A stretch of 44,966 bases of DNA, from positions 1 through 44,966 of the forward strand of contig JAJZWB010000009.1 in assembly GCA_021846845.1 (NCBI GenBank), in the 5' to 3' direction. A program made the translations under genes and the position numbers. Under the pieces are notes generated by a model. That model was not told the origin of the DNA and did not search any database. It saw only the letters and a list, made by a program, of their open reading frames with translations. The first letter of the stretch is position 1, and each line of letters opens with the position of its first letter. This DNA is from Actinomycetes bacterium (lineage in GTDB: Bacteria > Actinomycetota > Thermoleophilia > Solirubrobacterales > Solirubrobacteraceae). Of the stretch, positions 8,331 to 12,101 are shown piece by piece.

Positions 8331-9524
8331 ATGACGATCCGGGCCTGCGTGCTGCGAGAGCCCGGGCGCCCGCCGGCCGTCGAGACCGTGACCCTCGCGC
8401 CACCGGGACCGGGCGAGGTGCGCGTCCGCGTCGCGGCCGCCGGCGTCTGCCACTCTGACGTGCACCTCGCCGACGGGCTGCTCGGCGATGGCCGCTGGCC
8501 GATGGTGCTCGGCCACGAGGGCGCGGGGGTGGTCGAGGCGGTCGGCGACGGCGTCGCCGGGCTCGCTCCCGGGGATCGGATCGTGTTCTGCATGGTCGCC
8601 TCGTGCGGGGAGTGCGAGCCCTGTCGCGCCGGCAGGCCGACGCTGTGCGAGCCCGCCGGCGCCGCCTCGTTCGCCGGGAGCCTGCCGGGCGGCGGCTCGC
8701 GACTCAGGGACCGTGACGGCGCGCCGCTGCAGCACGCGCTGACCGTCGCCTGCTTCGCTCAGCACGCCGTCGTCGCCGCCGCGGGCGCGATCCCGATCCC
8801 CGACGACGTGCCGCTCTGGCAGGCCGCGCTGCTCGGCTGCGGAGCGGTGACCGGCTTCGGCGCGGTCGCCAACGCGGCACGGCTGCGCGCCGGCGACCGC
8901 GTCGCGGTGATCGGCTGCGGCGGCGTCGGCCTGCAGGTGATCGCCGCCGCGAGACTGGCAGGAGCGGCCACGATCGTCGCCGTCGACCGCGGCGCGGGCA
9001 AGCTCGAGCGCGCGCTGCGGCGCGGAGCGACGCATGCCGTCGACGCGGGTACCGAGGATGCGGCCTCCAGGATCGCCGCGCTCACCGACGGCGGCGCCGA
9101 CCGCTGCTTCGAGGTGGTCGGCAGGGCCGAGACGATCCGAGCCGCCTGGGACGCGCTGCGCCCGGGCGGGACCGCGGTCGTCGTCGGACTGGCGCCGCGG
9201 GGCGTCGAGGTGTCGCTGCCGGCGATAGAGCTGCTGTCGGAGAAGGCTCTGATCGGCAGCTACTACGGAAGCGGCGACCCGCGCCGGACGCTGAGCGAGC
9301 TCGTCGGCCTCGTCCGCGACGGGCGCCTGGCGCTCGACGAGGTCGTCTCTGACCTGATCGACCTGGACGGGGTCCCCGCGGCGCTGGACCGGCTGCGTCG
9401 CGGCGAGGGCGCCAGGTCGGTGGCTGTGATCGACCCTGACCTGGCCGGCGCGCGCCCCGGCGACGACGCCGGCGAGATCGCGGCGCGCGCCGCGGGCTCC
9501 GCGACACCGGGAGCGGCACGGTGA
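8331..9524 (+). CDS. Zn-dependent alcohol dehydrogenase (class III / formaldehyde-dehydrogenase-like MDR family)
   Basis: AAGVCHSDVHLADGLL, GHEGAGVVEAVG, CGECEPCRAGRPTLC structural-Zn site, GCGGVGLQ Rossmann motif; ATG at 8331. Confidence 0.88.
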   Translation: MTIRACVLREPGRPPAVETVTLAPPGPGEVRVRVAAAGVCHSDVHLADGLLGDGRWPMVLGHEGAGVVEAVGDGVAGLAPGDRIVFCMVASCGECEPCRAGRPTLCEPAGAASFAGSLPGGGSRLRDRDGAPLQHALTVACFAQHAVVAAAGAIPIPDDVPLWQAALLGCGAVTGFGAVANAARLRAGDRVAVIGCGGVGLQVIAAARLAGAATIVAVDRGAGKLERALRRGATHAVDAGTEDAASRIAALTDGGADRCFEVVGRAETIRAAWDALRPGGTAVVVGLAPRGVEVSLPAIELLSEKALIGSYYGSGDPRRTLSELVGLVRDGRLALDEVVSDLIDLDGVPAALDRLRRGEGARSVAVIDPDLAGARPGDDAGEIAARAAGSATPGAAR

Positions 9525-10057
9525 GCCCGTCGCCCGGGACCGGCTTCGACTGCCTGATCGGCGAGGGCTGGAGCGGCACGGACCCCAACGGCGCCCACGT
9601 CAACGTGGTGCTCGCCGAGCGCGGGACCCCGACCGCCGCCGCCCTGCTGACCACGTTCACCTCCCCCGCCCCCGGCCACGCGCCGATCCTCGTCGTCGTC
9701 GGCGAGACCAAGGACCGCTACGAGCCGGTGTGGCCGCCGACGATCATGATCAACAAGGAGACCGCACTGGAGCCGCTGCACCAGAAGATCACCTGGGGGG
9801 CCGGCCAGCTCGGGATCGCCCAGGGGGTCCTTGACGCGGTCGCCGAGGGCCTGATCTTCGCCAGCGGCTCGCTGCTCGTGTTCGTCGCGATCTACATCGA
9901 CCCGACCGCGCACGACGAGACCGCGGTGCGCGTCGCGAGCCGCGAGGCCACGCTGAAGGGGATCCGCACGGCGCGCCAGGGGCCCGGCCCGGACGCCGTC
10001 AGGGAGCTGGTGGATCGCCGCGACAGCCTCCGCAGCCCGTTCTACGACGGCTCGTGA
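9521..10057 (+). CDS. Formaldehyde-activating enzyme (Fae)-family protein
   Basis: IGEGWSGTDPNGAHVNVVLAERGTPTAAALLTTF...GHAPILVV...TIMINKETALEPLHQKITWGAGQLGIAQGVLDAVAEGLI...VFVAIYIDPTAHD: layout of Fae (VGEAL.GDGNEVAHIDL.IG.RG.P...; retained His in 'AHV'); GTG start overlaps ADH stop. Confidence 0.8.
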   Translation: MSPSPGTGFDCLIGEGWSGTDPNGAHVNVVLAERGTPTAAALLTTFTSPAPGHAPILVVVGETKDRYEPVWPPTIMINKETALEPLHQKITWGAGQLGIAQGVLDAVAEGLIFASGSLLVFVAIYIDPTAHDETAVRVASREATLKGIRTARQGPGPDAVRELVDRRDSLRSPFYDGS

Positions 10058-11166
10058 AGATCTCCTCGATCTCCCTGCAGCGACTCGCGCTGCCGCTCTC
10101 GCCGCCGTTTCACGCCGCCTGGGATCCGGTGCCCAGGACCAGGTTCGAGGCGACTATCGTGCGCGTGCAGACCGATCAGGGCCTCACCGGCATCGCCAGC
10201 GGCGACAGCATGGACGGCTTCGAGGCGTTCGAGCACCTGTTCGTCGGGCGCGACGCGCTCGCGATCGCGTCGCACGCTCGCACGCTCGAGACGATCTCGT
10301 TCCACTCCGGTCGCTTCTGGCCGCTGGAGGCGGCTCTGTGGGACCTGGCCGGCAGGGCTCTCGGGGTCCCGGTCGCGACGCTGCTCGGCGGCGCGGTCGA
10401 CCGCGTGCCAGCCTACGCGTCGCTGGGCGAGCTGCGCGCGCCGGCGGCGCGCGCGCAGGACGCGCGGTCGCTGCTGGAGGCCGGTTTCAGGGCGATCAAG
10501 GTGAGGATCGCCCGGGACGCGATCGCCGAGGGCGTGGACGTCGTGGCCGCGATCCGCGAGGAGGTCGGGGATCGCATGCAGATCATCGTGGACCTCAACC
10601 AGTGGTGGCGGATGCCGGGCGACATCGCCCCGGCGCTCGACCCGGCGGCCGCTCGCCGGGCCGTGGCGCGGCTGCGGGATCAGGGCGTGCTGTGGGTCGA
10701 GGAGCCGCTCGCCGGGGCCGACCTCGACGGCATGCGCGAGCTGCGCGCCGCCACCGGGGTGCGGGTCGGCGGCGGGGAGATGGCCCGGACCTTCGACGAG
10801 CTGCGGCGCGCGCTGGACGCCGGCGCGCTCGACGTGCTGCAGCCGGACGCGGTGCTCGCGCTCGGGGTGAGCGGCTCGCGCACGATCGCCGAGCTGGCCT
10901 TGCGCGCCAACCGGTGGTTCACCCCCCACACGTGGACCAACGGCATCGGCCTGCTCGCCAACCTTCACGTGTGCTGCGGCGTCGGCGGGGGCCCGTACCT
11001 GGAGTTCCCCTACGACCCGCCCGCCTGGACGCCGGAGCGCCGGGACTTCATGCTGGCGCAGCCGATCGAGATCGACGCCGACGGCTGCGTCGCGGTCGGC
11101 GACGAGCCGGGGCTGGGGATCTCGCTTGACGAGGACGCCGTGCGACGCTGGACGGTGAGGCCATGA
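10054..11166 (+). CDS. Mandelate racemase/muconate lactonizing enzyme (enolase superfamily)
   Basis: FRAIKVRIARD (KxR-like), IIVDLNQWW, WVEEPL, ANRWFTPHTWTNGIGLLANLH; GTG start overlapping Fae stop. Confidence 0.88.
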   Translation: MKISSISLQRLALPLSPPFHAAWDPVPRTRFEATIVRVQTDQGLTGIASGDSMDGFEAFEHLFVGRDALAIASHARTLETISFHSGRFWPLEAALWDLAGRALGVPVATLLGGAVDRVPAYASLGELRAPAARAQDARSLLEAGFRAIKVRIARDAIAEGVDVVAAIREEVGDRMQIIVDLNQWWRMPGDIAPALDPAAARRAVARLRDQGVLWVEEPLAGADLDGMRELRAATGVRVGGGEMARTFDELRRALDAGALDVLQPDAVLALGVSGSRTIAELALRANRWFTPHTWTNGIGLLANLHVCCGVGGGPYLEFPYDPPAWTPERRDFMLAQPIEIDADGCVAVGDEPGLGISLDEDAVRRWTVRP

Positions 11167-12101
11167 CCAGCGTCGCGTTCATCGGCCTGGGCCGGATGGG
11201 CGGCCACATGTGCGCCAACGTGGTCGCGGCGGGCTTCCAGGTGGCCGCCTACGACGTGGCGGCGGACACGATCGCCCGAGCTGCGCAGCGCGGCGCCCGG
11301 CCCGCCGAGAGCATGGCCGACTGCCTCGCCGGCGCCGAGGTGCTGGTCACGAGCCTGCCCGGTCCCCCTGAGGTCCTCGACGTGCTGTGCGGCGACGGCG
11401 GCGCGATCGCCTCCCTGCCGCCCGGGGCGCTGGTGATCGACACCAGCACCAGCTCGCTGCAGGTCAGCCGACTCGCCCAGGAGCAGGCGCGAGCCGCCGG
11501 AGTGCAGCTCATCGACGCGCCCGTCGCCGGGCAGACGATCGGCGCCCACGCCGGCACGCTCGCCGTCTATGTCGGCGGGGAGCCGGCCGCCTTCGAGCGC
11601 GCGCTGCCGATCCTGAACGCGATCGGCGATCCGAGGCGGATCCGCCACGTCGGGCCCGCCGGCTGCGGCCTGGCGGTCAAGCTGCTGCTGAACCTGCTGT
11701 GGTTCGTGCAGTCGGTGGCGGTCGCCGAGGCGCTGACGGTCGGCGTGCGGGCCGGGGTCGCGCTGGAGGATCTGCACGCGGCGCTGGTGGACTCGCCGGC
11801 CGGCTCGGTGTTCCTGGAGCGCGACGTCGTCCCGCTGCTCACCGACGGCGACTACGACGAGGGCTTCGTGATGCGCCTGGTCACCAAGGACCTCGGTCTC
11901 GCGGTCGATCTGGCCCGCGACGTCGGGGTGCCCGTCGAGCTGTCCTCGCTGGTGGAGCAGATCCACCGTCGGGCGCGCGCGGCGTTCGGCGACGGCGCCG
12001 GAGAGCTGAGCGCGATGCGCCTCTACGAGGAGCTGGCGGGCCTGCAGCTGCGCTTCGCCCCTCCGGACCGGCCCTCAGCCGACCCGCCGCACCGGTCCTG
12101 A
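11163..12101 (+). CDS. NAD(P)-dependent beta-hydroxyacid dehydrogenase (3-hydroxyisobutyrate dehydrogenase family)
   Basis: VAFIGLGRMGGHMCANVVAAGF; IDAPVAGQTIGAHAGTLAVYVGG; GPAGCGLAVKLLLNLL; ATGA overlap with upstream gene. Confidence 0.9.
   Translation: MTSVAFIGLGRMGGHMCANVVAAGFQVAAYDVAADTIARAAQRGARPAESMADCLAGAEVLVTSLPGPPEVLDVLCGDGGAIASLPPGALVIDTSTSSLQVSRLAQEQARAAGVQLIDAPVAGQTIGAHAGTLAVYVGGEPAAFERALPILNAIGDPRRIRHVGPAGCGLAVKLLLNLLWFVQSVAVAEALTVGVRAGVALEDLHAALVDSPAGSVFLERDVVPLLTDGDYDEGFVMRLVTKDLGLAVDLARDVGVPVELSSLVEQIHRRARAAFGDGAGELSAMRLYEELAGLQLRFAPPDRPSADPPHRS

What the first reader, a model, noticed from the sequence alone, without database searches (positions are those of the whole stretch)
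8331..12101. Tightly coupled ADH-Fae-enolase-superfamily-HIBADH operon of unknown substrate
Four consecutive genes share 4-bp stop/start overlaps (9521-9524, 10054-10057, 11163-11166), a strong sign of one pathway. The combination of a formaldehyde-type ADH, Fae, a racemase/dehydratase and a beta-hydroxyacid dehydrogenase suggests a route in which an acid is dehydrated or epimerised, oxidised, and formaldehyde is released and captured (for example a retro-aldol of a hydroxymethyl acid). The neighbouring peptide-type importer, M20 hydrolase, MFS and LysR could provide uptake, deacylation and control.
Basis: partly seen in the sequence, partly recalled or inferred. Interest (0 to 1): 0.7.

Follow-up and report, generated by a model that had tools for sequence, protein, structure and literature searches.

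The report
Fae-like/enolase catabolic operon, substrate unknown
Four tightly packed enzyme genes form a conserved but undescribed breakdown pathway in soil and freshwater actinobacteria, and the one that looks like a formaldehyde-capturing enzyme cannot be doing its textbook job, because the cofactor pathway it needs is not found in this organism.

Summary
ADH, Fae-like protein, MR-type enolase-superfamily enzyme and HIBADH-like enzyme (8331-12101) are joined by three 4-bp overlaps. It is not a local accident: the Fae-like/enolase pair is adjacent in 29 of 53 non-canonical Fae loci (Thermoleophilia, Rubrobacter-like, Streptomyces-like, streamlined actinobacteria). In 24 of 26 Thermoleophilia genomes with this enolase the Fae-like gene is also present, sometimes on another contig. 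The full four-gene set recurs in Solirubrobacterales.

The formaldehyde-capture reading is not supported. The window's 'Fae' is a paralog: below the Fae equivalog cut-off, outside the canonical clade (100/100), with AHxN where all 13 canonical or H4MPT-linked Faes have AHxD. Its genome has neither mch nor beta-RFAP synthase. Same-genus genomes with the H4MPT operon carry a separate canonical Fae there; some carry both.

Best reading: an uncharacterised solute-catabolism module. Two dehydrogenases and a one-base (His/Asp) enolase-superfamily lyase/dehydratase process an imported carboxylate, probably an amino or quaternary-ammonium compound (OpuC-type importers, MttB-like or BHMT-like genes nearby in relatives). 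The Fae-fold protein handles an aldehyde or carbinolamine step without H4MPT. Substrate and chemistry are inferred, not shown.

The parts
8331..9524 (+). Zinc MDR alcohol dehydrogenase (ADH2 type, 397 aa); catalytic and structural zinc ligand motifs present
   Evidence: Pfam PF08240/PF00107; below every NCBIfam equivalog cut-off; 63-74% identical ADH at the same place in L032-L037, and 62-65% identical ADH on the other side of ENO in L039, L040, L042; motifs GVCHSD, GHEG, CGECEPCRAGRPTLCE
9521..10057 (+). Fae-like protein (FaeL, PF08714, 178 aa, GTG start), not a canonical H4MPT-dependent Fae
   Evidence: Pfam 86.8 bits; TIGR03126 69.4 bits vs cut-off 118; only gene of the family in the genome; tree and AHxN signature; AF2 pLDDT 92, Foldseek finds only Fae 1y60/1y5y above E 0.001, TM 0.82, 28% identity
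10054..11166 (+). Enolase-superfamily enzyme (ENO), mandelate-racemase-like; K149-x-R151, D180/E216/E242, D265/H292, E317
   Evidence: Pfam PF13378/PF02746; residues invariant in 26 orthologs; AF2 pLDDT 90, Foldseek TM 0.83-0.87 to MR-type structures at 22-28% identity
11163..12101 (+). HIBADH-like beta-hydroxyacid dehydrogenase with altered motifs DAPVAGQ and KLLLNLLWF
   Evidence: Pfam PF03446/PF14833; below all NCBIfam cut-offs; the KLxxNxxWF subgroup is shared with FaeL-linked HIBs in L032-L037, L048, L049, L096-L098 and L102
7348..8268 (+). LysR-type regulator 62 bp upstream of ADH, probable regulator of the operon
   Evidence: Pfam HTH_1/LysR_substrate; a LysR of the same cluster lies just upstream of FaeL in L123; relatives use IclR or LacI instead
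358..2052 (+). Opp/peptide-type ABC importer, substrate-binding protein (by sequence)
   Evidence: same gene cluster as the OppA-like genes in front of ADH/FaeL/ENO in 12 other loci (cluster 6)
2052..3005 (+). Opp-type permease 1
   Evidence: cluster 3
3002..3886 (+). Opp-type permease 2
   Evidence: cluster 4
3883..5970 (+). Fused OppDF-type ATPase
   Evidence: 60-71% identical ATPase directly upstream of ADH or ADH' in L033, L035, L037, L039, L040, L042
20725..22242 (+). HAL-type (MIO) lyase paralog, possible but unproven pathway member
   Evidence: below the HutH cut-off (368.9 vs 539); a MIO lyase overlaps HIB by 4 bp in L035 and ENO by 4 bp in L126

Best explanation
SHOWN by sequence: the four genes are one conserved catabolic module whose core is the pair FaeL + ENO, with one or two dehydrogenases and an ABC importer around it. 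The FaeL protein keeps the Fae fold and the conserved His, Lys and Gln but is a distinct paralog, found in genomes without the H4MPT pathway. INFERRED: an imported carboxylic solute, probably an amino or quaternary-ammonium compound, is oxidised at an alcohol by the ADH. ENO, with a Mg-stabilised enolate and His292/Asp265 as the single base, removes the alpha-proton and expels a beta-substituent (dehydration or beta-elimination). The HIBADH-like enzyme interconverts the resulting beta-hydroxy acid and semialdehyde. FaeL catalyses an aldehyde step of the family's type (joining or splitting an aldehyde and an amine or similar carrier) without H4MPT. The substrate is not identified.
For: Conserved adjacency in 29 FaeL loci, gap -4 to +35 bp in 28 of them. 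ENO and FaeL occur in the same genomes, 24 of 26, also when unlinked (one-sided Fisher p 8e-25 with the least favourable count and without correction for kinship). mch and beta-RFAP synthase are absent in 17 Fae-bearing actinobacterial genomes including the window's; mch is found only where a canonical Fae operon exists. HxD 13/13 in canonical, HxN 52/53 in FaeL. ENO metal and dyad residues invariant in 26 orthologs and KxR instead of KxK. Solute type: OpuAC-family binding proteins beside FaeL in L048, L098, L099, L100 and OpuC-type permeases and ATPase in L037; MttB-like genes beside ENO in L105, L126, L128, L147, L149, L150 and BHMT-like in L032, L037. Other lineages pair FaeL with dehydrogenases of alcohol-aldehyde-acid routes: FaeL-ENO-ALDH-HIB-FeADH (L049, L100), FaeL-AKR-SSADH (L047, L131; AKR-FaeL-SSADH in L133).
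Against: No substrate, product or activity was tested. The window genome has no MttB-family gene and no close PuuC-like ALDH (best 36%), so the solute inference comes from relatives whose importer differs (OpuC versus Opp). The set around FaeL-ENO varies (HIB, second ADH, ALDH, Fe-ADH), so several substrates are possible. G793 has ENO and importer without FaeL in the operon. The ENO and FaeL trees place the window's group differently.
Confidence: 0.5

Rival explanations
1. One reading: the pathway releases formaldehyde (retro-aldol or demethylation) and FaeL captures it, with tetrahydrofolate or a thiol instead of H4MPT as carrier.
For: FaeL keeps the Fae fold and the conserved His, Lys and Gln. 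In acidimicrobial genomes FaeL pairs with a HalD-like 2OG dioxygenase, and enzymes of that kind can release formaldehyde from methyl groups. MttB-like and BHMT-like genes in relatives suggest methylated substrates.
Against: No formaldehyde-producing step is identifiable in the operon. The HxD Asp that all 13 canonical or H4MPT-linked Faes keep is Asn. Formaldehyde condenses spontaneously with H4F (PMC8879981), so an enzyme is not obviously needed. The ADH is not a formaldehyde dehydrogenase equivalog.
Confidence: 0.25
2. An ordinary sugar-acid route: aldose or polyol dehydrogenase, aldonate/aldarate dehydratase (ENO), tartronate-semialdehyde-type reductase (HIB), with FaeL as a lactone- or mutarotase-like helper.
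For: Nearest ENO structures include galactarolactone cycloisomerase, talarate/galactarate dehydratase and 3,6-anhydrogalactonate cycloisomerase. HIB scores 184 bits with tartronate semialdehyde reductase. An Amidohydro_2 protein accompanies some loci.
Against: All named sugar-acid dehydratase models miss their cut-offs by a wide margin (113 vs 311-500). The HIB SGG motif is changed to AGQ. Importers in distant modules are OpuC/quaternary-amine type. No sugar kinase, aldolase or sugar regulator was recognised in the neighbourhoods.
Confidence: 0.15
3. FaeL is not an enzyme of the pathway but an aldehyde buffer, sensor or subunit that protects the dehydrogenases or ENO.
For: Small single-domain protein. 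It is retained in the genome even when it leaves the operon, and its partner enzymes vary between lineages.
Against: The putative catalytic His, Lys and Gln are conserved in 53/53 FaeL, which points to catalysis.
Confidence: 0.1

Closest known systems
[quoted passage not shown]
   Same: Pfam family PF08714, same fold (TM 0.82), conserved GE, His, Lys and Gln positions
   Different: 28% identity, below the TIGR03126 cut-off, HxN instead of HxD, outside the canonical clade, genome without mch and beta-RFAP synthase, linked to ENO and not to mtdB/mch/fhc
Fae2/Fae3, distant Fae homologues of methylotrophs (Methyloversatilis, PMC5023235)
   Same: Distant Fae paralogs with no demonstrated Fae function; fae3 is induced on methylamine
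   Different: Found in methylotrophs that have H4MPT; the passages read report no enolase partner. Their sequences were not compared here
Enolase superfamily, mandelate racemase-like (3bjs, 2ovl, galactarolactone cycloisomerase 4hpn/4ggb, TalrD 2pp0)
   Same: Fold, metal ligands, His-Asp dyad
   Different: 22-28% identity, KxR motif, own invariant loop PPFxAAWDPxPR and NQxWRMxGD, own genome context
HIBADH / 2-hydroxymethylglutarate dehydrogenase (3cky) / tartronate semialdehyde reductase
   Same: Fold, catalytic Lys and Asn
   Different: DAPVAGQ instead of DAPVSGG, NLLWF after the catalytic Lys, below all equivalog cut-offs
S-(hydroxymethyl)mycothiol dehydrogenase / NDMA-dependent MDR alcohol dehydrogenases (Rxyl_3153 type)
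   Same: Zinc MDR family, class III-like sequence
   Different: 280-300 bits against cut-offs of 513 and 440; no sign that it acts on a formaldehyde-thiol adduct

Membership tests
Canonical H4MPT-dependent Fae | Fae fold / PF08714 | tested here: met
   86.8 bits vs 27; Foldseek TM 0.82 to 1y60
Canonical H4MPT-dependent Fae | NCBIfam equivalog score TIGR03126 | tested here: not met
   69.4 bits vs cut-off 118.05
Canonical H4MPT-dependent Fae | Placed in the clade of H4MPT-linked and methylotroph Faes, with HxD | tested here: not met
   Canonical clade 100/100 on a branch of 2.99; HxD 13/13 there, HxN here
Canonical H4MPT-dependent Fae | H4MPT pathway in the genome (mch PF02289, beta-RFAP synthase TIGR00144) | tested here: not met
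   0 of 17 Fae-bearing genomes including G000; mch found in same-genus genomes with a canonical Fae operon
Canonical H4MPT-dependent Fae | Catalysis of formaldehyde + H4MPT condensation | not testable with these tools
   needs biochemistry
Enolase superfamily, mandelate racemase-like | Three acidic metal ligands and His-Asp dyad | tested here: met
   D180, E216, E242, D265, H292 invariant in 26 orthologs; their roles are assigned from knowledge of the family
Mandelate-racemase-type two-base racemase | KxK motif, second Lys as the opposite-face base | tested here: not met
   K149-V-R151; K149 and R151 invariant
Named sugar-acid dehydratases (galactonate, talarate/galactarate, arabinonate, rhamnonate) | NCBIfam equivalog score | tested here: not met
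   113.6 vs 311, 113.3 vs 500, 106 vs 650, 67 vs 393
3-hydroxyisobutyrate dehydrogenase / tartronate semialdehyde reductase | Equivalog score and DAPVSGG substrate motif | tested here: not met
   191 vs 292, 179 vs 341; DAPVAGQ
S-(hydroxymethyl)mycothiol dehydrogenase / class III ADH | NCBIfam equivalog score | tested here: not met
   280 vs 513, 258 vs 544
Single operon | One transcript | not testable with these tools
   overlaps and conservation only; no promoter- or terminator-like site found in 7200-12700, which is uninformative in a high-GC genome

The most novel reading that the evidence does not exclude
FaeL + ENO is the core of an undescribed catabolic pathway, spread through soil and freshwater actinobacteria, for a quaternary-ammonium or related amino carboxylate, in which a Fae-fold protein has been turned into an enzyme of new activity (aldehyde or carbinolamine chemistry independent of H4MPT) working next to an enolase-superfamily lyase.
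Probability: 0.35. Interest if true: 0.78.

Novelty: new variant of a known kind. Interest (0 to 1): 0.57.

Why it matters
Genomes are annotated with 'formaldehyde-activating enzyme' wherever this family is found, and C1 or methylotrophic metabolism may be read into them. Here a sharp test (HxN versus HxD, missing mch, enolase partner) separates a widespread second subfamily with a different job. The conserved partner set makes its substrate searchable: one importer, one regulator and four or five enzymes, also present in a 1.3 Mb streamlined genome (G725). If the activity is new, it adds a function to a small protein fold so far tied to H4MPT chemistry and a new pathway to the enolase superfamily.

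Tried and rejected
Canonical formaldehyde capture: rejected after the H4MPT marker searches, tree and signature. Racemase role for ENO: thought unlikely, second base missing. Named sugar-acid pathways: cut-offs missed. Ergothioneine degradation (suggested by HAL-like lyases, OpuC-type importer and a hydantoinase-like neighbour): the ErtD models score 193-196 against cut-offs of 600-650, so it is not that defined route. A glyceryl-trimethylhomoserine (betaine lipid headgroup) substrate with ether cleavage by ENO was considered: it would use ADH, ALDH, ENO and HIB, but nothing tests it, so it is only an idea. MttB as an obligatory member: the window genome has none, and MttB presence follows lineages. 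PuuC-like ALDH as an obligatory member: no ortholog in the window genome. Literature searches for Fae + enolase found no description of such a module. Annotation of several plasmid hits was empty.
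Full report
WHAT IS THERE. The four genes are real and at the stated places: ADH 8331-9524, Fae-like 9521-10057, enolase-superfamily (ENO) 10054-11166 and HIBADH-like (HIB) 11163-12101, all on +, with GTGA, GTGA and ATGA overlaps. Pfam confirms each family. None of the four reaches a NCBIfam equivalog cut-off, so each is a divergent member. A LysR gene ends 62 bp upstream, the MFS is divergent from it, and an Opp-type importer (358-5970) lies further upstream. 4-bp overlaps also occur in the Opp and ETF genes of this window, so they say 'operon' but are not rare.

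CONSERVATION. A scan of genome contigs with the Fae-like protein returned six Solirubrobacterales contigs at 62-84% identity. In them the order is Opp importer - ADH - Fae-like - ENO - HIB, as far as the contigs reach. In other Thermoleophilia families and in G043 the order is Opp - ADH' - Fae-like - ENO - ADH, with an ALDH in some and no HIB. Rubrobacter-like, Streptomyces-like and other actinobacterial genomes have Fae-like - ENO - ALDH with HIB and/or Fe-ADH, some with an OpuC-type importer in front and an IclR gene divergent. Over all 53 non-canonical loci, 29 have ENO immediately downstream on the same strand, 28 of them with a gap of -4 to +35 bp.

CO-OCCURRENCE WITHOUT LINKAGE. The Fae-like model found 40 of 399 Thermoleophilia genomes; this count includes the canonical Faes described below. 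The ENO model found 26 of 299 genomes of the same set, and 24 of these carry the Fae-like gene. In nine of them (for example G900, G912, G1002) the two genes are on different contigs; where it could be read, ENO still sits with an Opp importer, ADH or MttB-like gene. A one-sided Fisher test with the least favourable count gives p 8e-25; the genomes are related, so this overstates independence. Exceptions are G793 and G942. In G793 the operon is intact except that another gene stands where Fae-like would be.

THE 'FAE' IS NOT FAE. (a) It is the only family member in the genome, and two markers of the H4MPT pathway, mch and beta-RFAP synthase, are absent there and in 16 further Fae-bearing actinobacterial genomes. 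(b) Same-genus and same-order genomes do have an H4MPT operon, recognised by sequence as fhc-type genes, mch and mtdB-like, with its own Fae (L116-L122); mch is found in four of them and the contigs of the others end or break near it. G927, G1084 and G1108 carry both kinds. (c) In the tree all H4MPT-linked and methylotroph Faes form one clade (100/100) on a long branch, and the window's protein is outside it. (d) The conserved AHxD is AHxN in 52 of 53 Fae-like proteins (one has T) and AHxD in 13 of 13 canonical ones, while His, Lys and Gln are conserved in both. (e) The predicted structure (pLDDT 92) matches only Fae, TM 0.82, 28% identity. So it has the Fae fold and probably a related chemistry, but not the textbook reaction. 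I call it FaeL.

ENO. The model (pLDDT 90) is closest to mandelate-racemase-like members at 22-28% identity. D180, E216, E242, D265, H292, E317 and K149 are invariant in 26 orthologs, and the second Lys of KxK is an invariant Arg. From knowledge of the superfamily (inference) this leaves one base, His292/Asp265, which fits a dehydratase, beta-eliminating enzyme or cycloisomerase better than a racemase. Trp23, Trp185 and Trp294 are also invariant; whether they line the pocket was not tested.

HIB AND ADH. FaeL-linked HIBs from distant actinobacteria share KLxxNxxWF after the catalytic Lys, and the window group has DAPVAGQ where DAPVSGG is usual. This suggests one subgroup with its own substrate. 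The ADH has the zinc motifs of the class III-like MDR family.

WHAT THE SUBSTRATE MAY BE. Beside FaeL in L048, L098, L099 and L100 are importers of the OpuC/OsmF family, whose solved relatives bind glycine betaine, choline, carnitine or ergothioneine; L037 has OpuC-type permeases and ATPase downstream. MttB-like genes lie beside ENO in six loci and BHMT-like genes in two. MIO lyases overlap the module in L035 and L126. Together these point to amino or quaternary-ammonium solutes. The weak point is that the window genome itself has an Opp importer and no MttB gene. MttB presence (22 of 26 module-bearing genomes against 5 of 30 others, counted) is confounded by lineage.

MECHANISM. I propose import, oxidation of an alcohol by ADH, alpha-proton abstraction and beta-elimination by ENO, interconversion of a beta-hydroxy acid and semialdehyde by HIB, and an aldehyde/amine step by FaeL. 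Only the family assignments, conserved residues, conservation and the absence of the H4MPT markers are shown; the order of steps and all substrates are inferred. The formaldehyde-release model remains possible only with another carrier.

NOVELTY. The papers found treat distant Fae paralogs (Fae2, Fae3) of methylotrophs as homologues without a demonstrated function (PMC5023235). No paper in the library was found that links a Fae homolog with an enolase-superfamily enzyme. The library holds open-licence papers only, so a subscription paper could exist. I rate it a new variant of a known kind: known folds, new subfamily and new gene set.

Noticed in passing
L116-L122 (G1075, G1105, G983, G1084, G1094, G1108, G927): Genuine H4MPT operons (fhc-type genes, mch, mtdB-like, canonical Fae) in MAGs of the window's own genus and order; mch confirmed in four. 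Possible formaldehyde-oxidising Solirubrobacterales.
   Followed up: partly
L043, L044, L045, L053, L054, L055, L056: In several other actinobacterial families the Fae-like gene follows a HalD-like Fe(II)/2OG dioxygenase gene, overlapping or close, as a two-gene unit; HalD family match shown for L044 and L045 only.
   Followed up: partly
window 12967-22242: hut genes (HAL, HutF-, HutI-, HutU-like) beside the operon, plus a second HAL-type lyase below the HutH cut-off; HutF/HutU genes are also beside FaeL-ENO-HIB in L034.
   Followed up: partly
window 35138-41376: By sequence, an Fe-S/ferredoxin-type protein, two ETF subunits and a dimethylglycine-dehydrogenase-like protein in a row on -, suggesting methylated-amine oxidation in this genome.
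   Followed up: no
window 12211-12891: VapC-family PIN toxin (TIGR00028, over its cut-off) with a small upstream gene that looks like its antitoxin, directly downstream of the operon on -.
   Followed up: no
window 5691-7289: The MFS reading frame runs 280 bp into the 3' end of the OppDF gene in antisense; its last part matches only antisense OppDF in relatives, so the true C-terminus may be shorter.
   Followed up: partly
L041 (G209): FaeL-ENO lies convergent to hisA and next to what looks like a histidine biosynthesis cluster; meaning unknown.
   Followed up: no
window 9521-11166 against L039-L042, L049-L051: FaeL of the window group clusters with other Thermoleophilia, while its ENO clusters with Streptomyces-like and Rubrobacter-like sequences, suggesting recombination within the module.
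   Followed up: no
G209, G846, G891, G900, G982, G994: Five or six MttB-family genes per genome, far more than in relatives, some with an in-frame stop in the match.
   Followed up: no
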